From Candidatus Poribacteria bacterium (GTDB taxonomy: Bacteria; Poribacteria; WGA-4E; PCPOR2b), in NCBI GenBank assembly GCA_022822785.1, contig JAJEAL010000031.1, positions 1-32,171 on the forward strand: DNA of 32,171 bases. Direction: 5' to 3'. Numbering within the stretch: the stretch's first letter is position 1; each line of letters opens with the position of its first letter. The translations under genes and the position numbers were made by a program. A model generated the notes under the pieces. That model was not told the origin of the DNA and did no database searches. It worked only from the letters and a program-made list of their open reading frames with translations. This document shows, in pieces, positions 19,398 through 30,526 of this stretch.

Positions 19398-20795
19398 ATG
19401 AGTCTGAAAATAGAGTTAAAAAATCTTGGCATCCTAAAACAGGCGGAGTTTTCGCTCGGAGATTTGACCCTTATCTGTGGAAAAAATAACACCGGCAAAA
19501 CCTATATTGCCTATGCACTGTATGCTTTCTTGAATGCTTGGCGCGGACTGACTGAGTTTGGGGTGAACAGTACTCAAATTCAACGCCTGCTTACAGATGG
19601 TGGTATCAAGATTGAGTTGGGGGGATATGCCGAAAAGGTGGATCAGCTGCTCGCAGAAGCATGTAAACGATATACCAATCAACTAGATAGCACAGTTTTT
19701 GCGACAACTGAAGGCCGATTTCATAACAGCGAGTTTCACGTCCAGATAGATGCGATTGACATACGCAATAAAGAACTCAAACGCGAACTGGGAATTGCTC
19801 AAGAGCGGTTTCTTAGGTATTCAAAGGAACGAGGTAGTGAAGAACTCACGGTGAGTTTGGTAGTGCAAAGAGATCAAGAGAGAGAAATAGATCCTTTTTT
19901 TACCGAAAGATCTGTTAACTTCATTATCGGCAATGCTATTTTTTCCGATTCTTTGCCTACTCCCTTTATTGCTTCAGCCGAGCGCACCGGACTCGCTATT
20001 TTCCGTAGGGAACTCAATTTTGCTCGGAATCGCTTACTTGAGGAAATGGGACGATCGAACCCTAAGATTGATCCTCAGGATTTGCTATTCAAAGCGTATC
20101 AAAGTTACCCTGTGCCGATAGAAGATAACGCGGATTTTATACGTCAACTTGAAGATATTGCAAAAAGAAACAGTTTTCTTGCTAAAGAACACCCTGAAGT
20201 ATTAGACGACTTCACTGACATTATCGGTGGCGAATACACTATAACACAAGATGACCAACTCTACTACACCCCCAAAGGGACGCGGCTTAAATTGACTATG
20301 GTTGAAAGTTCGAGTGCTGTGCGTTCACTTGTGGATCTCGGTTTTTATCTGCGCCATGTCGCCCAAAAGGGGCACCTACTTATGGTAGATGAGCCGGAAT
20401 TAAACCTGCATCCGGCAAACCAACGTCGCATTGCCAGACTTTTTGCACGTCTGGTGAATTTGGGTGTTAAGGTGTTTATCACCACCCACAGCGATTACAT
20501 CGTCAAAGAGTTGAATACCCTCATTATGCTCAATCACGATAAACCACACCTGAAAAGGATTGCCAAAGAGAACGGTTATCAGGAATCTGAGTTAATCCGT
20601 TCAGATCAGGTCAAGGTCTATATGACTCAAGAAGCACTAGTGCCATTAGAGGAGGGACAAAAGAGACGTAGAAGGGCCCACACGCTTGTGGAGGCTGATG
20701 TTGATCCAGTACTTGGCATTGAAGCCCGCAGCTTTGACGAGACGATTAATGAGATGAACAGTATTCAGGCAGACATTGTGTGGGGTGCGGAGTAA
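19398..20795 (+). CDS. ABC/AAA_15-like ATPase of a defence ATPase-nuclease pair
   Basis: A 465-residue P-loop ATPase of the SMC/OLD-like (AAA_15/AAA_21) class used as sensor or motor in many phage-defence systems. Walker A is GKNNTGKT (28-35). A long central insert (about 50-300) holds helical, coiled-coil-like sequence (RNKELKRELGIAQERFLRYS). A signature-like MVESSSAVRSL at 301-311 precedes Walker B LLMVDEPELNLHP (327-339) and the switch histidine H364 in FITTHSDYI. There is no TOPRIM domain at the C-terminus; a short acidic tail ends the protein. ATG 19398 has GGAGG about 8 nt upstream. The nuclease-like gene starts four nt after its stop and res follows, so the three form an operon. The exact defence family is not recognised. 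Confidence 0.85.
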   Translation: MSLKIELKNLGILKQAEFSLGDLTLICGKNNTGKTYIAYALYAFLNAWRGLTEFGVNSTQIQRLLTDGGIKIELGGYAEKVDQLLAEACKRYTNQLDSTVFATTEGRFHNSEFHVQIDAIDIRNKELKRELGIAQERFLRYSKERGSEELTVSLVVQRDQEREIDPFFTERSVNFIIGNAIFSDSLPTPFIASAERTGLAIFRRELNFARNRLLEEMGRSNPKIDPQDLLFKAYQSYPVPIEDNADFIRQLEDIAKRNSFLAKEHPEVLDDFTDIIGGEYTITQDDQLYYTPKGTRLKLTMVESSSAVRSLVDLGFYLRHVAQKGHLLMVDEPELNLHPANQRRIARLFARLVNLGVKVFITTHSDYIVKELNTLIMLNHDKPHLKRIAKENGYQESELIRSDQVKVYMTQEALVPLEEGQKRRRRAHTLVEADVDPVLGIEARSFDETINEMNSIQADIVWGAE

Positions 20796-20799
20796 GATT

Positions 20800-21363
20800 G
20801 TGAACGATATTGAAATATTGAAGGAAATGCTCGTCTGCGATGTCCAAGTTTCGTTACAACAGAAAGGAAGTCAACTGCCCTCTGTTAAACTAAAAGATAG
20901 ACAGGCGAACACGACTGTGGAGATAAAAGATTTGCCTCATGACTCAATTGTGATCAAAGCGGAAGATTTTAAGGACCCTCCTACTGTCTTTCAGGGGTCG
21001 AAGGACGAAGGCAGGCGGGCTGATTTTGTGATTGTATCCAATGACGGAATGAAAAAATGGATTGTTTGTATTGAAGTTAAGAGAGGTACAAGGATACGAC
21101 GAAACAGGGTTATAGCACAATTACGAGGTGCACGGTGTATTATGGATTACTGCAAATCTATAGGAAGAGAATTCTGGTCAGCAAGGGGATTTCTCAAAGG
21201 CTATGAATACCGATTTGTAGGTATAGCACGCCTTAACATTCAAATCCAACCAACACGTTCCGGTGCTTCTGGTGGTCCTTCCAGAACAAATTTGCATAAT
21301 CGGCCTGAGGCTTTTCTACGAATTTTAGGAAGGCAGAGCCTCTATTTCAACGAGTTGACCTAA
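20800..21363 (+). CDS. Predicted PD-(D/E)XK nuclease partner of the preceding ATPase
   Basis: A 187-residue protein that I do not recognise as a named family. It shows a PD-(D/E)XK-like core: GRRADFVIVSNDG (D75), then a strand WIVCIEVKRG giving E92-V-K94, then IAQLRGARCIMDYC, where Q107 fits the helix glutamine often found in such nucleases. An N-terminal helix and a C-terminal segment YEYRFVGIARLN complete it. GTG 20800 is chosen: it is four nt after the ATPase stop with GGAG at 20789-20792; a TTG at 20776 would overlap the ATPase end. The coupling implies that the ATPase and this nuclease act together, as in ATPase-nuclease defence pairs. It could instead be a nuclease-like fold without activity. 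The function is inference. Confidence 0.65.
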   Translation: MNDIEILKEMLVCDVQVSLQQKGSQLPSVKLKDRQANTTVEIKDLPHDSIVIKAEDFKDPPTVFQGSKDEGRRADFVIVSNDGMKKWIVCIEVKRGTRIRRNRVIAQLRGARCIMDYCKSIGREFWSARGFLKGYEYRFVGIARLNIQIQPTRSGASGGPSRTNLHNRPEAFLRILGRQSLYFNELT

Positions 21364-21375
21364 TGAGGTATCCTG

Positions 21376-24057
21376 ATGGCACTACATCCCAACTTCCCCG
21401 AATCGCCACACGAAATTATTGACCCCGCAGTGCGCTGGCTTCCAGACAACCAAACACTCGGAGACACCGATTACGGAAAACTGCTCCCCCCACTTGTCCA
21501 CAAGATTCGCGCGGAGGTCAAAGCGTGGCGCGATAGCGACTACAGCGGTGCTACCGAAACGAGCAAAGCGCTTCTCAATTGGTGGTTCAATACCCCTCAC
21601 CCGGTAGAGGAGTTAGATGGTACGATGACCGAGTTTCAGTACTACTTTGCCCAGCGCGAGGCACTGGAAACCATCATCTACCTGTACGATGTGTTCAAGG
21701 TGAGAGACAGATACGACCTGATGCGTTTCGACAGTTCGGGTGCTATTTCAACGGGGATGTTCGACGAAGATTGGCGGCGATTTGTGCTGAAAATGGCGAC
21801 AGGGACAGGCAAAACAAAGGTGATGAGCCTTGCGATCGCTTGGAGTTTCTTCCACAAACTGTACGAACCCGATTCCGAACTATCCCGCAACTTTCTGGTC
21901 ATTGCCCCCAATATCATCGTGTTGGATCGTATCTATCATGATTTTCAGGGGTTGCGTGTTTTCTTTGAGGACCCTGTGTTGCCCGATAACGGTTTTGAGG
22001 GGCGGGACTGGCGCGACGATTTTCAACTGACCCTACATCTACAGGACGAGGTACGCGTCGTCCACCCCACCGGCAACATCTTTCTGACCAATATCCACCG
22101 CGTCTACTCCGGGGATCAGCCGCCGCCGTCCCCCGACGACGACAACAGTATGGACTACTTCTTGGGGACGCGGCCAACGGGCGCAACCACCGATTCTAAG
22201 GTAGACTTGGGCGTAATTGTCCGTGACATTGACGAATTGATGATCTTGAACGATGAAGCACATCATATCCACGACAACAAGTTGGCATGGTTCAAATCGA
22301 TCGAGGACATTCACAATCGCCTGCTGCAGAAAGGGGGAGCGTTGGCGTTACAGGTCGACGTAACCGCCACGCCCAAGCACAACAATGGGGCGATTTTTGT
22401 GCAGACGGTGGCAGATTACCCGCTCGTGGAGGCGATTTCGCAAAATGTGGTCAAGCGTCCCGTACTTCCCGATGAAGAAAGCAGGGGCAAGCTGACCGAG
22501 CGACAAAGTGCGAAGTACACCGAAAGATACGCGGACTACCTCGATCTCGGCGTTATTGAGTGGCGTAAAGGGTCCGCAGAGCATGAAAAGGTAGGAAAGA
22601 AAGCCATTCTGTTTGTGATGACCGACCACACCCGGAACTGTGACGAGGTCGCGGAATATCTTGAAAATAGCTATCCCGATCTGAAGGAGGCTGTGCTGGT
22701 GATTCACACAAAGCAAAACGGCGAGATTTCCGAAGCTGCATCCGCTAAGAATCAAGAAGAATTAAAGAAACTGCGTAAACAGGCGAAGGAGATCGATTCG
22801 CCAGAGAGTCCGTACAAGGCGATTGTCTCAGTGTTGATGCTCAAGGAGGGGTGGGATGTCAAGAACGTTACCACCATTGTCGGACTGCGCCCCTATTCCG
22901 CCAAGAGCAACATTTTACCTGAGCAGACGCTAGGACGTGGGCTACGTCGGATGTACACCGAGGAAGTGCCGGAAGTTGTCAGTGTTGTCGGCACCGATGC
23001 CTTTATGGAATTTGTCGAATCAGTTCGAGTAGAGGGCGTGGAATTGGAACGCCGCCCGATGGGGCTAGATACCAAACCCAAAACGCCACTTGTGATCGAG
23101 GTGGACAAAGAAAACGGGGACAAGAACATCGACGCCCTAGATATCGAAATTCCAACCTTAACGCGGCGCGTTTATCGCGAATACAGGAATCTGGAAGGTC
23201 TGGACCTTACACAACTCGACTTTCCGCCTGTGACGTATCAGGGCTTTAGCAAAGAGGAGCAGCGGGAGATTGTTTTTCGGGATATGACAACCGGTGAGGA
23301 AACACACAGAACAGTGATGGATAGTACCGGCGTCGCAGATTATCGCAGCGCGGTCGGCTATTTTGCACAGACCATCATGAAAGAGTTAAAATTGGTCAGC
23401 GGTTATGATGTGCTGTACGGGAAGGTTAAAGAATTTATCCAAAACCAGTTGTTCGGTGAGCCGGTGGATTTGGATTCACCCAATACCGTCCGCAATCTGT
23501 CAGAACCCGCTGCCACAAAAACCGTGATTGAAACCCTCAGACGAGCCATAAACGACCTCACGATACAGGATAAAGGTGAAGCACAGATTAGCGAGATTAT
23601 CAGGTTACGGGATATACGGCCCTTTGTGGTCAAGGAGCAATCCTATTTGACCCCCGAAAAATCTGTGTTCAACAGAATCACCGGCGATAACCAATTGGAG
23701 CGGGATTTTGCCGCATTTCTGGAGGACAGTCCTGATGTAGTTTCCTTCGGAAAAAATTATTTTGCGACGGGTTTCAAGTTGGATTACGTCAATGATGATG
23801 GCGGCATCTCCAACTACCATCCCGATTTCTTCGTAAAATTGGCGGACGGACGGATAATTGTCGCCGAGACCAAAGGACGGAAGGATGTGGATGTAGATCC
23901 CAAGATGCACCGACTGGCGCAATGGTGTAAGGATGTCAACATCAACCAATCCGATGTCGTCTACGACTTTGTTTATGTTGATGAGGATAATTTTCGGGAG
24001 TATACACCGAGAACATTTCAGCAACTACTTGAAGGATTCCGGGAATACAAAACCTGA
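21376..24057 (+). CDS. Type III-like restriction enzyme, Res subunit (SF2 helicase plus PD-(D/E)XK nuclease)
   Basis: An 893-residue restriction subunit that would translocate on and cut DNA lacking the partner methylation. The helicase core has Walker A ATGTGKT (141-147), FLVIAPNIIVLDRIYHDF, the DEAH-like box NDEAHH (292-297) and VDVTATP (327-333). The second RecA domain has LMLKEGWDVKNVTTIVGLRP and QTLGRGLRRMY. The C-terminal endonuclease motif is YHPDFFVKLADG...AETKGRKD, with D817, E831 and K833. The N-terminal block (LLNWWFNTPH, FQYYFAQREALETIIYL, LMRFDSSGAI) resembles what I recall as the BPTD_3080-type restriction endonuclease group. ATG 21376 has GAGGT upstream and a 12-nt gap from the nuclease gene. 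Its methyltransferase is 2.3 kb downstream, beyond three unrelated genes, and comes after res rather than before it, which is unusual for type III loci. Confidence 0.92.
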   Translation: MALHPNFPESPHEIIDPAVRWLPDNQTLGDTDYGKLLPPLVHKIRAEVKAWRDSDYSGATETSKALLNWWFNTPHPVEELDGTMTEFQYYFAQREALETIIYLYDVFKVRDRYDLMRFDSSGAISTGMFDEDWRRFVLKMATGTGKTKVMSLAIAWSFFHKLYEPDSELSRNFLVIAPNIIVLDRIYHDFQGLRVFFEDPVLPDNGFEGRDWRDDFQLTLHLQDEVRVVHPTGNIFLTNIHRVYSGDQPPPSPDDDNSMDYFLGTRPTGATTDSKVDLGVIVRDIDELMILNDEAHHIHDNKLAWFKSIEDIHNRLLQKGGALALQVDVTATPKHNNGAIFVQTVADYPLVEAISQNVVKRPVLPDEESRGKLTERQSAKYTERYADYLDLGVIEWRKGSAEHEKVGKKAILFVMTDHTRNCDEVAEYLENSYPDLKEAVLVIHTKQNGEISEAASAKNQEELKKLRKQAKEIDSPESPYKAIVSVLMLKEGWDVKNVTTIVGLRPYSAKSNILPEQTLGRGLRRMYTEEVPEVVSVVGTDAFMEFVESVRVEGVELERRPMGLDTKPKTPLVIEVDKENGDKNIDALDIEIPTLTRRVYREYRNLEGLDLTQLDFPPVTYQGFSKEEQREIVFRDMTTGEETHRTVMDSTGVADYRSAVGYFAQTIMKELKLVSGYDVLYGKVKEFIQNQLFGEPVDLDSPNTVRNLSEPAATKTVIETLRRAINDLTIQDKGEAQISEIIRLRDIRPFVVKEQSYLTPEKSVFNRITGDNQLERDFAAFLEDSPDVVSFGKNYFATGFKLDYVNDDGGISNYHPDFFVKLADGRIIVAETKGRKDVDVDPKMHRLAQWCKDVNINQSDVVYDFVYVDEDNFREYTPRTFQQLLEGFREYKT

Positions 24058-24080: not shown

Positions 24081-24172
24081 GGTTCATGTCAAAAGAAAGT
24101 GTAAAGCGCGAAGAGAAACCGAGTTTTTTCTTGAAAACTCGGTTTCTGTTTCACCATTTCTTAACATAAACC
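24081..24172. mobile_element. 92-bp miniature inverted-repeat element, second copy, inside the defence island
   Basis: It begins GGTTCATGT and ends ACATAAACC, with a central hairpin GAAACCGAG...CTCGGTTTC. The flanks GGTTTTTC (24073-24080) and AGTTTTTC (24173-24180) match at 7 of 8 positions, an aged target duplication. It has the same length and architecture as 5402-5493. It separates res from the ParA-like gene and could reduce read-through or place new signals between the two operons. Confidence 0.8.
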
Positions 24173-24198: not shown

Positions 24199-25290
24199 AT
24201 GACAGCTTACGCTTTTTGGAACAACAAGGGGGGCGTTGGCAAAAGTTTTTTAAGTTTTGTTGCAGCAACTGAGTATGCCCGCACGTATCCAGACACTGAT
24301 GTCTACGTTATAGATCTATGTCCGCAGGCAAATATTTCTGAGATGTTGCTCTTGAATGCCGAAATGTTAATTGATTACGACGACATGTCGCTCATCAGCT
24401 ATGATGTGATTCACAGAAATTATGATGTGATCCACAAATTGATAGAAAAGAAACCCCGTTGTACAGTCGCAGGCTATCTTGAAGCACGACTAAATTCTCC
24501 TTTTCGACCTATTGAGGATGTGTCTCCCTATGTGTGTCGGCCTCGGGACTTCAACACAAAACTTCCAGTAAATTTACAGTTGGTTTGCGGTGATTATCTT
24601 CTTGAAATTCTATCAGAAGCAATTCGCCAAACTTCGCAACTCGCGATTCCAGTGGATGCGTGGAAACAGGTGATCAATTGGATCAAAGATTTAACAATGA
24701 CGTTGCGTCAGCGGAGCGGAAACAGAGATGCACTTTTTATTCTTGACTGTAATCCGAGTTTTGCGATCTACACCCAGTTGGCTCTCGCGGCTGCAGACAA
24801 TCTTGTTGTGCCTTTTACGCCTGATGATAGTTCGCGCCGAGCTGTGGAGAATGTCGTTGCGCTGCTATATGGCAATGGTATGGGGGACCCGAAGATAGAA
24901 ACGTATGCAAAAATCAATTTTGCCAATAGGGCGAGAGAAGAAGGTTTGGATATTCCGAAACTTCACACCTTCGTTAACAATCGCATAACACTCTATCGTG
25001 GCAAAGCAAGCAAGGCTTTTGAAGCGGTGAGCGAGTCTATTAAGGAAACCGTGGATGCTCTTCACAAAAAGCATCGCCAAATCTACGCAACCCCGGAAGA
25101 GTTGCCGAGCAAAAGGTTCATAGACGTACCTGACTATCATAGCGCATGTGTTGTTATGACCGTTAAAGGAATACCCTTAGATAGCCTTCAAGCAGGACCA
25201 AATAGGCTTGGCGATAAACAGATTCAACTTAATTCCGAACCATTAGAACGGTATCGAAAAGCACTCACCAAATTTGTAAATTGTCTTTGA
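24199..25290 (+). CDS. ParA/MinD-like ATPase in the restriction-modification locus
   Basis: A 363-residue ATPase with the deviant Walker A KGGVGKS (10-16) of the ParA/MinD class, which form ATP-dependent dimers on DNA or membranes. Switch I is VYVIDLCPQAN, where the usual D-x-D-PQ-N has Cys in place of the second Asp. The LFILDCNPSFAIYTQLALAAADNLVVPFTPDDSSRRAVENV stretch (about 182-222) is the typical ParA Walker B and following region. No ParB gene or parS site accompanies it, so chromosome or plasmid partition is unlikely; placing or gating a complex is more plausible. A 21-bp tandem repeat gives YDVIH twice around residues 68-80. A strong AGGAGG box precedes ATG 24199. The membrane-protein gene follows after 103 nt. 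The role is inference. Confidence 0.85.
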   Translation: MTAYAFWNNKGGVGKSFLSFVAATEYARTYPDTDVYVIDLCPQANISEMLLLNAEMLIDYDDMSLISYDVIHRNYDVIHKLIEKKPRCTVAGYLEARLNSPFRPIEDVSPYVCRPRDFNTKLPVNLQLVCGDYLLEILSEAIRQTSQLAIPVDAWKQVINWIKDLTMTLRQRSGNRDALFILDCNPSFAIYTQLALAAADNLVVPFTPDDSSRRAVENVVALLYGNGMGDPKIETYAKINFANRAREEGLDIPKLHTFVNNRITLYRGKASKAFEAVSESIKETVDALHKKHRQIYATPEELPSKRFIDVPDYHSACVVMTVKGIPLDSLQAGPNRLGDKQIQLNSEPLERYRKALTKFVNCL

Positions 25291-25393
25291 CTTACGAGAT
25301 CTCTAGCATCTGGCAATTAACCGAGGAAAGTTAATAAATAAAGTCAATGAAGGAGGCTTGTAGGAAATAATTCCTTTGATACACCGATAAATT

Positions 25394-25858
25394 ATGAAAA
25401 ATATCAAATACATCGTGCCAGTGTCAATCGGTTTAGGCATCTTGGCATTAATAATACTTGTGGTCATAGCAGCCACACGAAATTTGAGTGGTTTGGAGAG
25501 TGTACTTTTGCAAATTATTCTCTTAGCAATAGGCAGTAGTATTTCGTTCTTTATTGGTCAAAAGTCGGCTCGTGAGGCAGCGAGCGAAATCATCAAGCCA
25601 CATGCACGGTCTGCATTCCGTCGCCTTATCTCCCTTTATAACGGTCTCTCTCGGGCAGCAAAGGCAATCGAATCATCACAGAGTTCAAAATCCGATGAAG
25701 ACTATCAAGTGCTACTCGCCCGTCTTAGAGAAATCGTTGCCCATCAACTAATAACAGCAGACAATGCGCTAGAAGATTGGAACGACATTGTTCCGGAAGA
25801 TGTGAAAGAGTTAAAGCAGAAACTTCAATCTGACAATACAACGGAGGAAAGACAGTGA
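25394..25858 (+). CDS. Two-helix membrane protein with cytoplasmic coiled coil
   Basis: A 154-residue protein of no recognised family. Residues 6-27 (IVPVSIGLGILALIILVVIAA) and about 35-54 (VLLQIILLAIGSSISFFIG) are two membrane helices separated by a short loop. The remainder (about 55-154) is charged and helical: KSAREAASEIIKPHARSAFRRL and LLARLREIVAHQLITADNAL, likely a coiled coil in the cytoplasm. The last four bases (GTGA) overlap the start of the next gene, so the two are translationally coupled. The 103-nt gap before it holds an AAGGAGG at 25350-25356 and a small hairpin AGGAA-ATAA-TTCCT (25362-25375), but the direct ribosome site for ATG 25394 is weak. Position beside the ParA-like ATPase suggests a membrane anchor for it, which is inference. 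Confidence 0.7.
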   Translation: MKNIKYIVPVSIGLGILALIILVVIAATRNLSGLESVLLQIILLAIGSSISFFIGQKSAREAASEIIKPHARSAFRRLISLYNGLSRAAKAIESSQSSKSDEDYQVLLARLREIVAHQLITADNALEDWNDIVPEDVKELKQKLQSDNTTEERQ

Positions 25859-26310
25859 GCACACCGATTCGCGGAAAAGTCGCCTATGTGCTTAACAACG
25901 GCGACATCGTAATAAACGTAGGAGCAGCCCATGGCGTACATCGAGGTATGTACTTTGATGTGCTAGATGACCGTAATTTAGAGATAAGAGACCCCGATAC
26001 GCAGGAAGTAATAGGTTCCCTTGAGATTTCAAAAATTAAAGTAGAAGTTATTGATATTCAAGAAAAAATATCGGTAGCAACCCCACACCTATCGGTAGAA
26101 AGGAGGACTGAGGATAGCTACAGAGTTTCAATACCCCTTGGTCCATTCGCTCGATCTCTTATGCCCCCCGGCTGGGTAACAGAGGAGGCAATATCCCGGA
26201 GTAAGAAGGATAACAACGTGGGGATCGGGGATTCTGTCGTTCAATTTATTGGAGAGATTTATCCTGATAATATTGACAGGGAACAAATAACAGTAGATAT
26301 AGAGGAGTAA
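25855..26310 (+). CDS. Small beta-rich protein, FlgT-C-like repeat domain
   Basis: A 151-residue protein of unknown function. The N-terminal half reads GKVAYVLNNGDIVINVGAAHGVHRGMYFDVLDD, then DPDTQEVIGSLEISKIKVEVIDIQEKISVAT. This G-x-V...I-N-x-G...G-V-x-x-G-M-x-F-x-V layout resembles the small barrel at the C-terminus of FlgT and related surface or ligand-binding proteins. The C-terminal part (about 85-151) is less distinct. There is no signal peptide or membrane helix. GTG 25855 overlaps the upstream stop by four bases, with GGAGG about 8 nt before it, so it is co-translated with the membrane protein. It may form a soluble adaptor for that protein. I cannot assign a function. Confidence 0.65.
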   Translation: MSTPIRGKVAYVLNNGDIVINVGAAHGVHRGMYFDVLDDRNLEIRDPDTQEVIGSLEISKIKVEVIDIQEKISVATPHLSVERRTEDSYRVSIPLGPFARSLMPPGWVTEEAISRSKKDNNVGIGDSVVQFIGEIYPDNIDREQITVDIEE

Positions 26311-26342: not shown

Positions 26343-28595
26343 ATGCCACGACTCACAGAGCAAGAACAACAAGAAATCATCCGCTTTCTTGAGGCGGACA
26401 AGCCGCTGCCCGAAAAATACCGCTTTCTACTATTTGAAGACAAACGTGAGGTCGAGTTAGTCTGGAACGGCAAAACCAACGAAGTCTGCAACATCGTCCT
26501 GCCCTTCCAATCAATTGAACTAGTGGATGAGCCCCGCGCCGAAAAGCCGGACGAAACCACCTTGCAACTGGATCTGTTTGATGAGCGGGGGCGCCAGCGC
26601 AAGGGCTGGACCAACAAACTAATCTGGGGCGATAACAAGTTGATTCTTTCATCGCTCAAGAATGGTCCCCTGCGCGAGGAAATCGAAGCACAAGGGGGCT
26701 TGAAGCTAATCTACATTGACCCACCCTTTGACGTGGGCGCGGATTTTTCGATGAATATCGACATTGGTGAAGACACCTTTACCAAGAAACCGAACATCCT
26801 CGAAGAGATTGCCTACCGTGACACCTGGGGCAAGGGAGCGGATTCCTTTATTGCGATGATCTACGAGCGGTTGGTTCTGATGAGGGATCTACTGGCAGAG
26901 GAGGGGAGTATTTACGTGCATTGCGATTGGAGAATGGTTGGCTATCTAAGAATAGTTATTGATGAAGTCTTCGGATCTGACCATTTCCAAAACATAATTA
27001 CTTGGCGTAGAGGACCGCAAAAATCGCACGGGTTAGGTTATGGGCATAATGCAGACTACATAATTTATGCAACCAAAACGGATCGAGTTGTATGGAATAT
27101 ACAAACCGGTGAATTATCAGAGGAATACTTGGATTCTTTCAAAGAAGATGAGCACGGGAAGTACGTTACAACTCCTCTGCATAGTGGGCGTCCACCGAAA
27201 AATGTACCTGAATGGCGTGGAGTCAAACCTCCACTAGGCAGAGGGTGGGCATACGCGATTGAGACATTGGAAAAATTAGATAAAGAGGGCAAAGTTGAGT
27301 GGAGCAAGAATAGAGTTCCACGACTAAAGCGATATTTGAATGAGATAAAGGGTGCTGCGGTTCAAGAAATTTGGACAGACATTAAACCGCTATTAGCAAA
27401 ATCGTCATCGCATGTCGGTTACCCCACCCAAAAACCGGAACCCCTACTGGAACGCATTATCAAAGCATCCTCTAATGAGGGGGATCTCGTTGCTGATTTC
27501 TTCTGTGGATCCGGCACCACCGCCGCCGTTGCTGAAAAACTGGGGCGCAAGTGGATTTGCACGGACCTGGGCAAGTTTGCCCTCCACACCACCCGAAAGC
27601 GGCTGATTGGAGTCCAACGTCAACTCAAGGCGGATGGAGAGGACTACCGCGCCTTTGAAATCCTTAATCTTGGCAAATATGAGCGTCAACACTACATCGG
27701 TCTCAATCCAAACCTGCGCGAAGCCGAACAGGAGCAGCAGTTAGAAGAAAAGGAGAAGGCGTTTGTCAATCTCATCTTGCGTGCCTATTCCGCCGAAATA
27801 ACGGACGGTTTTACCGCCTTTCAAGGGTTGAAAGCGGGGCGGCTTGTAGCGGTGGGTCCCGTCAACCTGCCGGTGACACGCCTCTTTATTGAGGAGATTA
27901 TCTTAGAATGCCGCAAACATCGGATCAGTCGTGTGGACATTCTCGGCTTTGAGTTTGAGATGGGGTTGTTCCCCAACCTGTTAGATGAAGCGCGGAGCAA
28001 AGGCATTGACCTCGCGCCGAAATACATCCCCGCCGAGGTGTTCGACAAACGGGCGGTGGATCGAGAGCAGGTCGTATTTCACGATGTGGCGTTTATTGAG
28101 GTCAAGCCGATCGTGACACCCGGCAAGAAGAGCACACCTCCTACCGTGGCGGTGGAGTTGACCGATTTTTCCGTGTTCTATTCACAGGATGCTAACACCG
28201 ACGCCGATCAGCAGCTCAAAAACAGGAGTAGCTCGGTTAGGGTCGAACAGGGGCAGATTATAAAAGTGAGCAAAGATGCAAACGGGGTTGTTGACCGTGA
28301 AGTGTTGACGAAACAGTGGACGGACTGGATCGACTATTGGTCGGTAGATTTTGACTTCGAGAGCAAACGCGAAATTATCCGCGTGCAAGATCCGGGGACG
28401 GGTGAGTGGGAAGAACAGTGGACCGGCGACTACATCTTTGAAAACGAGTGGCAAAGCTTCCGCACCAAGAAGGACCGCTCGTTGGAATTGACTAGCGTCG
28501 CCCATGAATGCAACCCCGGACGACGCAAGCTCGCCGTCAAGGTGGTGGACATTTTCGGGAATGATACAATGACGATTGTGGAGGTAACAGTGTGA
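26343..28595 (+). CDS. Type III-like adenine-specific DNA methyltransferase (Mod)
   Basis: A 750-residue beta-class N6-adenine methyltransferase that would both modify and, with Res, recognise the target. Catalytic motif IV is LIYIDPPFD (DPPF at 126-129) and the AdoMet-binding motif I is DFFCGSGTTAA (385-392). The target-recognition region lies between them (about 200-355), and GYPTQKP precedes motif I. The C-terminal third (about 430-750) carries extra domains that usually contact Res (FSVFYSQDANTD, DWIDYWSVDFDF). The ATG is 16 nt after a GGGAG box. The stop overlaps the following ATPase start by GTGA. The recognition region has visibly lower G+C (for example 21/60 on 27061-27120 against 37/60 on 27541-27600), as if exchanged. 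The last 129 nt recur at about 31809-31937 with 93% identity. Confidence 0.92.
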   Translation: MPRLTEQEQQEIIRFLEADKPLPEKYRFLLFEDKREVELVWNGKTNEVCNIVLPFQSIELVDEPRAEKPDETTLQLDLFDERGRQRKGWTNKLIWGDNKLILSSLKNGPLREEIEAQGGLKLIYIDPPFDVGADFSMNIDIGEDTFTKKPNILEEIAYRDTWGKGADSFIAMIYERLVLMRDLLAEEGSIYVHCDWRMVGYLRIVIDEVFGSDHFQNIITWRRGPQKSHGLGYGHNADYIIYATKTDRVVWNIQTGELSEEYLDSFKEDEHGKYVTTPLHSGRPPKNVPEWRGVKPPLGRGWAYAIETLEKLDKEGKVEWSKNRVPRLKRYLNEIKGAAVQEIWTDIKPLLAKSSSHVGYPTQKPEPLLERIIKASSNEGDLVADFFCGSGTTAAVAEKLGRKWICTDLGKFALHTTRKRLIGVQRQLKADGEDYRAFEILNLGKYERQHYIGLNPNLREAEQEQQLEEKEKAFVNLILRAYSAEITDGFTAFQGLKAGRLVAVGPVNLPVTRLFIEEIILECRKHRISRVDILGFEFEMGLFPNLLDEARSKGIDLAPKYIPAEVFDKRAVDREQVVFHDVAFIEVKPIVTPGKKSTPPTVAVELTDFSVFYSQDANTDADQQLKNRSSSVRVEQGQIIKVSKDANGVVDREVLTKQWTDWIDYWSVDFDFESKREIIRVQDPGTGEWEEQWTGDYIFENEWQSFRTKKDRSLELTSVAHECNPGRRKLAVKVVDIFGNDTMTIVEVTV

Positions 28596-30130
28596 AAATA
28601 GATTCAATTCATTTACAGAATTTCAAGCGGTTTACCAACTTGAAAATTCAAAATATCCCTGCGATGGCGAAACTGGTGGTTCTGCTTGGTCCCAATGGTT
28701 GTGGAAAATCATCGTTGTTTGATGCCTTACACTACAAATCTTATGAATATAGGCGGTTAGGACGCAATGAGGATCCTGATTATTATTTCAAAATACCTAC
28801 TCAGGAACGGCGGTCAAATCTAATAGATATTGAATTTCACAACCCATCGCAATCTGATATGGGAAAAGCGATTTATGTGCGAACTGCCTACCGTAATGAC
28901 CCGGTGATAAATGTAGAGTCAATACAAAGGATGCAATCGGCTATCCGAGAAACAAGATTCAATAGCCTAATTGAAAACGATGCTGCAGCTACCGGCAATT
29001 ATCAAAGACTTGCCTCTAACGCACTAGAGCGTGCATTTAGAAGGGAGGATCGGGCAAAAAGTTTGGGAGATTTTCAAGATGAGACCCTTGGGGAGATTCA
29101 AGCTGCCATGAATCGGCTTTTTCCTGATCTAATGCTCAATAGTTTGGGGAACCCCCTTAGTGACAGAAGCTTTACTTTCGACAAGGGAACAAGTAAAAGT
29201 TTTCTTTATAAGAATCTTTCGGGTGGAGAAAAATCTGCTTTTGATTTACTCTTTGATATTTTTGTCAAAAGGGTAGAATATGATGATACTGTTTTTTGTA
29301 TAGACGAGCCGGAAGCACACATGAATCCTAGATTACAGGGGCATCTTCTTGAGGAACTTTTTCGGTTGATGAACGATAAATCGCAATTGTGGATTGCGAC
29401 CCATGCTATTGGTATGATGCGACAGGCACTGCAGCTATACGAACAATACGGAGAGGAGATAGTATTTCTTGATTTTAGCGATGGAAACTTTGACAGCCCG
29501 GAGATTATAGAGCCTACCAAGCCCAATCGTAGATTCTGGGAACAAACACATGAGATTGCTTTAGACGATTTAGCTGCGCTCGTCGTACCGAACCAGATTG
29601 TTATTTGTGAGGGAAAACAAGGGGATAAAGGTCTCGACGCAGAATGCTACAATCATATCTTTTCCGAAGAATTTCCCAATACAAAATTCATTTCGGGAGG
29701 GGGTAAGAGAGATCTACGAAATTACATCTCAGTTATTGATGCGGTTGCGAAAGGTGTAACTGTCTTTGGCCTCAGAGATCGTGATCAAGCCTCATGTGGG
29801 GAAGTAGCCCAGTGGAAACAAGAGGGAATAAAAGTTTTGGAGCAAGGACAACTCGAAGACTATCTGCTAGCAGACGATGTATTACGCGCACTATGTCAGC
29901 ATAATGAACTAGAACCTTACGAGGAAAAAGCAGACGAATTGATAGAATTACGAGACAGTATTTCAAATATCAAAGACGCTGCTAATCAAATTCGTCGAAA
30001 GGTAATTGATTGGGGAGTGCACGGGGCGGGCGAGGCTCCTGAAGGATTTCTGCGCGATACAGTCGCTCCACGGATCAAACCCGGAATGCCTACTTATGTC
30101 GAATTGAAACAGATAATTTTTGGGTCGTGA
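28592..30130 (+). CDS. ATPase fused to DUF4435/TOPRIM-like nuclease domain (fused PARIS-like, OLD-like)
   Basis: A 512-residue protein with an ABC/AAA_15-type ATPase and a C-terminal TOPRIM-like domain. Walker A is GPNGCGKSS (33-41), the signature is LSGGEKSAFDLLF (209-221), Walker B is VFCIDEPEAHMNP (234-246) and the switch histidine is H271 (IATHAIG). The second domain starts at IVICEGKQGDKGLDAECY, with the TOPRIM glutamate E340, and has the D-x-D pair D396/D398 in LRDRDQ. That order and spacing fit DUF4435, the AriB-type nuclease domain, while the front half fits AriA. PARIS systems are known in fused form and respond to phage anti-restriction proteins. The start GTG 28592 overlaps the mod stop by four bases, so it is made with Mod. 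OLD-family or another ATPase-TOPRIM fusion is the alternative; subfamily assignment needs alignment. Confidence 0.8.
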   Translation: MKIDSIHLQNFKRFTNLKIQNIPAMAKLVVLLGPNGCGKSSLFDALHYKSYEYRRLGRNEDPDYYFKIPTQERRSNLIDIEFHNPSQSDMGKAIYVRTAYRNDPVINVESIQRMQSAIRETRFNSLIENDAAATGNYQRLASNALERAFRREDRAKSLGDFQDETLGEIQAAMNRLFPDLMLNSLGNPLSDRSFTFDKGTSKSFLYKNLSGGEKSAFDLLFDIFVKRVEYDDTVFCIDEPEAHMNPRLQGHLLEELFRLMNDKSQLWIATHAIGMMRQALQLYEQYGEEIVFLDFSDGNFDSPEIIEPTKPNRRFWEQTHEIALDDLAALVVPNQIVICEGKQGDKGLDAECYNHIFSEEFPNTKFISGGGKRDLRNYISVIDAVAKGVTVFGLRDRDQASCGEVAQWKQEGIKVLEQGQLEDYLLADDVLRALCQHNELEPYEEKADELIELRDSISNIKDAANQIRRKVIDWGVHGAGEAPEGFLRDTVAPRIKPGMPTYVELKQIIFGS

Positions 30131-30160
30131 CACGGTGTTACACATTTTGGGGAGAGAACC

Positions 30161-30526
30161 ATGCCGGAAGATATTCAGGTATCCATGTTTGAAGTTGTGG
30201 GCGGTCCCTTGTGCGTCGCTTCCAACGATGGGCAAAAGGTTTATGAACGCCTTGCCGCTGCCCTTAAAGCCGACCGGCATGTTACACTCTCATTTCGCAA
30301 GGTCACGACGTTGACCGCAGCATTCCTGAATGCTGCAGTTGGTCAGTTGTATGGGACCTTTGGTAAAGAAAAAATTCGTTCACTATTGAAGGTGAAAGAC
30401 GTGGAGCCAGTAGATCTTGCACTGTTGAAGCGCGTTGTTGATAATGCCAAACTATACTTCAAAGATCCGCAGAGATTTAACCAAGTGATTCGGGAAACGC
30501 TGGAGGATGAAGATAGTGCGCCATAA
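30161..30526 (+). CDS. STAS-like domain protein (DUF4325)
   Basis: A 121-residue single-domain protein. The segment RHVTLSFRKVTTLTAAFLNAAVGQLYGTFGKEKI is the core of the STAS-like DUF4325 family, whose members resemble anti-sigma-factor antagonists and sit in signalling or defence clusters. The STAS phosphorylated serine position appears as T or A here (VTTLTAAFL), so phosphorylation control is unlikely. The C-terminal helix (DLALLKRVVDNAKLYFKDPQRFNQVI) is typical. ATG 30161 has GGGGAGAG about 6 nt upstream. It starts 30 nt after the ATPase-DUF4435 gene, in the same direction, and is probably on the same transcript. No partner kinase is seen. Confidence 0.72.
   Translation: MPEDIQVSMFEVVGGPLCVASNDGQKVYERLAAALKADRHVTLSFRKVTTLTAAFLNAAVGQLYGTFGKEKIRSLLKVKDVEPVDLALLKRVVDNAKLYFKDPQRFNQVIRETLEDEDSAP

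What the first reader, a model, noticed from the sequence alone, without database searches (positions are those of the whole stretch)
24199..26310. ParA-like ATPase + membrane coiled-coil + small beta protein lodged between res and mod
Three genes with no known part in type III restriction (a ParA/MinD-like ATPase without parB, a two-helix membrane protein with a cytoplasmic coiled coil, and a FlgT-C-like beta protein) sit between res and mod on the same strand. The last two overlap by GTGA. A membrane anchor next to a ParA-type ATPase suggests a module that localises or gates the restriction complex at the envelope, perhaps where phage DNA enters. This could be an undescribed defence module; only the gene order and domains are observed.
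Basis: partly seen in the sequence, partly recalled or inferred. Interest (0 to 1): 0.75.

Follow-up and report, generated by a model that had tools for sequence, protein, structure and literature searches.

The report
Two accessory cassettes inside restriction operon
Between the cutting and the marking gene of a bacterial DNA-restriction system sit two separate add-ons: a ParA-type ATPase whose toxin partner has been deleted, leaving a scar, and a membrane protein paired with a small beta protein, a pair that recurs beside defence genes, on plasmids and in a prophage of distant microbes and seems not to have been described.

Summary
In detail: ParA, a two-helix membrane protein and a FlgT-C-like protein lie between res and mod, and this recurs in relatives. 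But they are not one trio; the res-mod gap is a slot for interchangeable cassettes. (1) The ParA belongs to a ParA-HEPN RNase dyad, predicted in 2013 to be a toxin-antitoxin pair. HEPN directly follows ParA in 16 of 20 Poribacteria loci and 24 of 25 related loci elsewhere. The window has lost HEPN: the last codons of a HEPN gene survive as a scar right after the ParA stop, and no other copy was found in the genome. Relatives lost HEPN independently, yet ParA stays intact and under purifying selection. (2) The membrane/FlgT-like pair is a separate cassette, usually with its own promoter; it assorts independently of ParA (p = 0.69). The same two-gene architecture occurs beside a type II R-M system with Vsr, on three bacterial plasmids (one with a TIR gene), on a haloarchaeal plasmid and in a prophage. 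I found no description of it. Most likely both are back-up defence cassettes riding on the R-M system; the pair's mechanism (membrane effector plus cytosolic partner) is inference. Localisation of the restriction complex by ParA is not supported.

The parts
19398..20795 (+). AAA ATPase of candidate defence pair PDC-M47A / PD-T4-4_A
   Evidence: PADLOC PDC-M47A E 2e-203, PD-T4-4_A E 7e-158
20776..21363 (+). PDC-M47B partner
   Evidence: PADLOC PDC-M47B E 5e-55; overlaps the previous gene by 20 nt
21376..24057 (+). res: helicase-nuclease of a type III-like R-M system
   Evidence: ResIII E 9e-16; PADLOC REase_III; NCBIfam BPTD_3080 E 3e-79 but below its cut-off; ATGTGKT, DEAH and PD...ETK motifs invariant in A5
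24199..25290 (+). ParA/Soj-type ATPase, clade A (normally followed by HEPN)
   Evidence: purifying selection
25291..25321 (+). scar: 3' end of a deleted HEPN RNase gene (ACTTAC..AGCATCTGG ~ T-Y-x-x-x-S-I-W), directly after the ParA stop
   Evidence: 24 of 31 and 24 of 30 bases match HEPN 3' ends of L045 and L035; 0 of 500 shuffles and 0 of 492 genomic stretches score as high
25378..25393 (+). degenerate copy of the promoter (extended -10 TGATACA..) upstream of the membrane gene; transcript would be leaderless
   Evidence: TTGACA-17 nt-TGATACAAT ending about 8 nt before ATG is conserved in relatives (L038, L180, L182); the window copy is weaker
25394..25858 (+). two-TM membrane protein with cytoplasmic helical domain
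25855..26310 (+). FlgT_C-like small beta protein, no TM segment by hydropathy
   Evidence: PF16538 E 3e-5; PHROG 27728 (unknown function) E 4e-6; fold hit FlgT 3w1e
26343..28595 (+). mod: beta-class N6/N4 DNA methylase, DPPF..DFFCGSGTT, variable target-recognition region
   Evidence: PF01555 E 6e-41; MTase_III E 2e-104; A6
28592..30130 (+). OLD/AriAB-like AAA-type protein, 4-nt overlap with mod
   Evidence: PADLOC AriAB E 3e-37
30161..30526 (+). STAS-like DUF4325 protein
   Evidence: PF14213 E 1e-15

Best explanation
The res-mod gap of a type III-like R-M locus is a cargo slot that holds interchangeable back-up defence cassettes. The window's slot carries (i) an orphan ParA, the regulatory/antitoxin half of a ParA-HEPN RNase dyad whose toxin was deleted, and (ii) an independent two-gene membrane cassette (2TM protein + FlgT_C-like protein), usually with its own promoter. 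Shown: the separate histories, the scar, the recurrence of both pairs elsewhere. Inferred: in intact loci ParA holds the HEPN RNase inactive until infection or loss of R-M function releases it (as PrrC guards a type I R-M system); the 2TM protein acts at the membrane as effector or entry block, and the FlgT-like protein is its cytosolic sensor or regulator.
For: HEPN directly follows ParA (gap -1 to 15 nt) in 16 of 20 Poribacteria and 24 of 25 other clade-A loci; HEPN_RiboL-PSP E 1e-9 with an invariant RHxxAH motif. Deletion scars in the window, L046 and (only ~3 codons) L048; losses independent on the tree (supported branches force at least 4 label changes). ParA dN/dS 0.04-0.19. ParA and membrane gene assort independently. 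Slot cargo varies: ParA-HEPN, 2TM-FlgT, c15 TM protein, Mrr nuclease; a same-genus relative has no recognisable cargo (L194), and outgroup loci are mod-res with no slot. Conserved promoter ahead of the membrane gene whatever lies upstream. Membrane gene overlapping or abutting a small FlgT-like gene recurs beside type II R-M + Vsr (L217), after a TIR gene (L211), on plasmids L212, L220, L221 and in phage P7.1 next to an HSDR_N protein; such a neighbour occurs by chance in 1.1% of ORFs of this size. HEPN-ParA dyad predicted as toxin-antitoxin by Anantharaman 2013 (PMC3710099).
Against: No functional data. FlgT_C is below Pfam's cut-off, and sequence similarity of the membrane proteins between phyla is weak (hhalign E 0.002 but probability 13%) or undetectable, so common descent of the pairs rests mainly on the FlgT half and gene order. 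A solitary membrane gene persists beside lpdA in four genomes without FlgT or res/mod. The window's promoter copy is degenerate. Other defence loci lie in the same island, so linkage alone does not prove joint function. The recurrence sample outside the phylum is small (six pairs).
Confidence: 0.6

Rival explanations
1. After the toxin was lost, ParA was recruited to the membrane/FlgT pair: the window's three genes are a new functional unit in which 2TM-FlgT replaced HEPN as the effector under ParA control.
For: All 4 HEPN-less slot loci have the membrane/FlgT pair directly after ParA, against 3 of 11 with HEPN that carry the pair (p = 0.026); ParA stays under purifying selection.
Against: Only 3 supported independent pairs, sign test not significant; the pair keeps its own promoter and occurs without ParA elsewhere.
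Confidence: 0.15
2. One reading: ParA, membrane protein and beta protein localise or gate the restriction complex at the envelope.
For: Recurrent position between res and mod.
Against: ParA and the membrane gene assort independently; ParA's regular partner is HEPN; the pair occurs beside unrelated R-M systems and without any R-M.
Confidence: 0.07
3. Hitchhiking: the genes are decaying passengers of a defence island with no current function here.
For: HEPN is deleted and the promoter degenerate in the window; many relatives show stumps of res, mod or cargo (L033, L040, L043, L050).
Against: All three ORFs intact; ParA dN/dS 0.19 or less; ParA kept after independent HEPN losses; branch to the window's ParA not longer than its sisters.
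Confidence: 0.15
4. The orphan ParA is an anti-addiction antitoxin that protects against incoming ParA-HEPN elements (compatible with the main explanation).
For: No HEPN partner found in the 96%-complete genome, yet ParA is conserved; close relatives carry active-looking dyads.
Against: Antitoxin activity of this ParA is itself only predicted; distant clade-B ParAs are solitary in prophages and plasmids, one next to a repressor, suggesting a function of ParA alone.
Confidence: 0.2

Closest known systems
HEPN (MAE_18760)-ParA/Soj predicted toxin-antitoxin dyad (Anantharaman et al. 2013, PMC3710099)
   Same: ParA-type ATPase gene directly followed by a small HEPN protein with an Rx4H motif
   Different: HEPN here matches Pfam RiboL-PSP rather than a model named MAE_18760; the window has lost HEPN; the dyad lies inside a type III-like R-M locus
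PrrC in type I R-M operons (works like)
   Same: HEPN RNase module embedded in an R-M operon as possible second line
   Different: ParA-type rather than ABC ATPase, separate proteins, type III-like R-M, toxin lost in the window
Type III restriction-modification (res/mod)
   Same: ResIII helicase with PD-ExK end and beta-class Mod with variable TRD
   Different: res precedes mod, with a cargo slot between them; outgroup loci are mod-res adjacent
FlgT (flagellar H-ring) C-terminal domain
   Same: beta fold of the small protein; 3w1e among the top fold hits
   Different: stand-alone, no apparent signal peptide, paired with a 2TM protein, no flagellar genes seen nearby
2TM membrane effectors of CBASS-type systems (works like; from general knowledge)
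   Same: small two-TM protein beside a cytosolic partner in a defence context
   Different: no cyclase found in the locus; partner is FlgT_C-like

Membership tests
Type III R-M | Res with SF2 helicase motor and nuclease domain | tested here: met
   ResIII E 9e-16; motifs invariant in A5
Type III R-M | Mod of beta-class N6 methylases with TRD | tested here: met
   PF01555, MTase_III; variable middle region in A6
Type III R-M | ATP-dependent cleavage between inversely oriented sites | not testable with these tools
   needs biochemistry
ParA-HEPN dyad | ParA ATPase with deviant Walker A | tested here: met
   NNKGGVGKS conserved
ParA-HEPN dyad | HEPN gene directly downstream | tested here: not met
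   absent in the window, scar only; present in relatives
ParA-HEPN dyad | HEPN toxicity neutralised by ParA | not testable with these tools
   no experiment found in the papers searched
ParABS partition system | parB next to parA, parS sites | tested here: not met
   no ParB among flanking genes by Pfam; parS sites were not searched for
FlgT protein | PF16538 above cut-off, full-length periplasmic protein in a flagellar cluster | tested here: not met
   24.8 against 27 bits; 151 aa, no N-terminal hydrophobic segment
Known PADLOC defence system | model match for ParA, 2TM or FlgT-like | tested here: not met
   no match for ParA and FlgT-like; one weak Cas5_IIIh match (E 0.003) for 2TM, judged spurious

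The most novel reading that the evidence does not exclude
The membrane/FlgT_C-like pair is a new, phylum-crossing two-gene antiviral membrane module (bacteria, archaea, plasmids, prophage) that plugs into different defence systems (type III and type II R-M, TIR) as their membrane-acting arm.
Probability: 0.4. Interest if true: 0.78.

Novelty: new variant of a known kind. Interest (0 to 1): 0.6.

Why it matters
It turns an odd trio into two testable modules. One is a ParA-HEPN dyad predicted in 2013 but, as far as I could find, never tested, shown here to lose its toxin repeatedly while the ATPase is kept. The other is a recurrent, apparently undescribed membrane/FlgT-like pair tied to restriction systems and mobile elements. 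A slot between res and mod that swaps back-up cassettes would make R-M operons organised platforms for layered defence, as known for PrrC in type I systems.

Tried and rejected
Joint trio: rejected by independent assortment and by occurrence of each pair alone. Plasmid partition: no ParB among neighbours; clade-B ParAs on plasmids and prophages are solitary, one sitting next to a CI-type repressor. Another HEPN copy in the genome: none with the A1 profile; one sub-threshold PF18735 match in a 59-aa frame. Viral-contig scans for the FlgT-like protein found no relatives. Fold search of the membrane protein gave nothing significant. FlgT-like ORFs without a membrane partner (G188, G227, G364, G365) were set apart as another group. 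Gifsy-1 STM14_3218-3220 (ParA-like gene in a prophage immunity region, needed for RtcR activation; PMC9879122) was noted, but its relation to this ParA was not tested.

Full report
Observation. The three ORFs exist as described, on the + strand between res (21376-24057) and mod (26343-28595), with a GTGA overlap of the last two. ParA carries the deviant Walker A NNKGGVGKS, DLCPQAN and DCNPSF. The 154-aa protein has two TM segments and a helical remainder. The 151-aa protein is FlgT_C-like: Pfam E 3e-5 just under the cut-off, confident core 4-78, second Foldseek hit FlgT 3w1e at E 2.5e-4. The top PDB hit, the LPHT ring 8z5n, is from general knowledge also a flagellar structure. The genome is Poribacteria-like, judged by its nearest named relatives.

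Surroundings. Upstream is a PDC-M47/PD-T4-4 pair. Downstream of mod lie an OLD/AriAB-like ATPase and a STAS protein. res and mod are intact by motifs, and the target-recognition region of mod varies as expected.

Recurrence. ParA at about 70-85% identity occurs in 20 readable loci of the order, and 15 lie beside res and/or mod. Two more keep a stump of mod or res (L033, L040), and three stand beside a dihydrolipoyl dehydrogenase-like gene. ParA and res co-occur by genome (16 of 21 against 12 of 52, p = 4e-5).

ParA's partner is HEPN. In 16 of 20 loci ParA is followed after about 9 nt by a 200-aa HEPN_RiboL-PSP protein (E 1e-9) with an invariant RHxxAH. This pair exists far outside the phylum (Caldilineaceae, cyanobacteria, actinomycetes, proteobacteria): 24 of 25 loci. 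A more distant clade (about 37% identity) is solitary, in prophages and small plasmids; in the one plasmid inspected it follows a CI-type repressor. Anantharaman et al. 2013 (PMC3710099) predicted a HEPN-ParA/Soj toxin-antitoxin dyad; I found no test of it.

Lost toxin. In the window the 31 nt after the ParA stop match the 3' end of HEPN genes, better than 500 shuffles and 492 genomic stretches. L046 keeps a 24-nt 5' stump, and L048 a 7-nt match that is not significant alone but lies in place. HEPN-less ParAs are scattered on the tree, with at least 4 changes of the label on supported branches. The scars give the direction, loss. No HEPN was found elsewhere in the 96%-complete genome. ParA remains under purifying selection (dN/dS 0.04-0.19).

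A slot with exchangeable cargo. Between res and mod lie, in different genomes, ParA-HEPN, 2TM-FlgT, a multi-TM protein (c15), an Mrr nuclease, combinations of these, or nothing recognisable (L194). L038 has membrane-FlgT before ParA-HEPN, other loci after. ParA and membrane gene assort independently (p = 0.69). HEPN-less loci all carry 2TM-FlgT (p = 0.026), but the tree-based test is not significant. The table behind these tests was compiled by hand, and some loci are cut by contig ends. A TTGACA-17-TGATACAAT promoter ending at the membrane gene's ATG is conserved in many copies whatever lies upstream; the window copy is degenerate.

The pair elsewhere. A small FlgT-like ORF preceded by an overlapping or abutting membrane-protein gene occurs on a Glutamicibacter plasmid right after a CAP12-type TIR gene, on Psychrobacter, Ca. 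Megaera and Haladaptatus plasmids, on a chromosome beside Vsr, DUF4928 and a C5 methylase (L217), and in Lacticaseibacillus phage P7.1 between an HSDR_N-type protein and an integrase-like gene, called from its sequence. Background frequency of such a neighbour is 1.1%. FlgT-like proteins match PHROG 27728, unknown function. The membrane partners are similar to each other only weakly (window-Glutamicibacter, Psychrobacter-Megaera) or not at all. Searches of the paper library found no description.

Mechanism. Best supported: an R-M locus with a cargo slot for back-up cassettes. Step shown: modularity and histories. Steps inferred: ParA restrains HEPN; 2TM acts at the membrane under control of the FlgT-like protein. 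In the window the first cassette is disarmed, so the membrane pair, if any, is the working one.

Limits. No function was measured; MAG assemblies may hide copies; the survey outside the phylum is small.

Noticed in passing
window 19398-21363: PDC-M47A/B (PD-T4-4_A-like) pair directly upstream of res; in many relatives the same pair lies at the other end, after mod/STAS (L034-L049).
   Followed up: partly
window 26343-30526: Downstream of mod is a second variable zone: OLD/AriAB-like ATPase, STAS (DUF4325), another unassigned protein (c26), PIN protein, in varying combinations.
   Followed up: partly
window 26343-28595 (A6): mod is highly conserved except about residues 200-350, the target-recognition region, suggesting exchange of specificity.
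   Followed up: no
L037, L040-L042, L181, L183, L189, L190: A second spot, next to a dihydrolipoyl dehydrogenase-like gene, holds ParA-HEPN or a solitary membrane gene; L040 has a res stump, so it may be a decayed R-M locus.
   Followed up: partly
L209 (Salmonella plasmid) and prophage loci L137-L179: Distant solitary ParA follows a CI-type repressor on a 5.9-kb plasmid that looks like a phage immunity region; many prophage copies also have a gene of about 230 aa upstream.
   Followed up: partly
L066 (OY282381.1, Caldilineaceae): ParA-HEPN at 72% identity in another phylum, suggesting recent transfer between phyla.
   Followed up: no
L080, L082: ParA-HEPN lies near a type IIG restriction-methylase (L080) and a gene with mad8/SspH matches (L082).
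   Followed up: partly
window 24115-24146: Inverted repeat GAAACCGAG..CTCGGTTTC between res and ParA, possible repeat element or terminator.
   Followed up: no
L045 11395-16762: FlgT-mod unit duplicated in tandem.
   Followed up: no
L032 6408-7556: TnpB-like gene (382 aa, judged from sequence) inserted between HEPN and mod.
   Followed up: no
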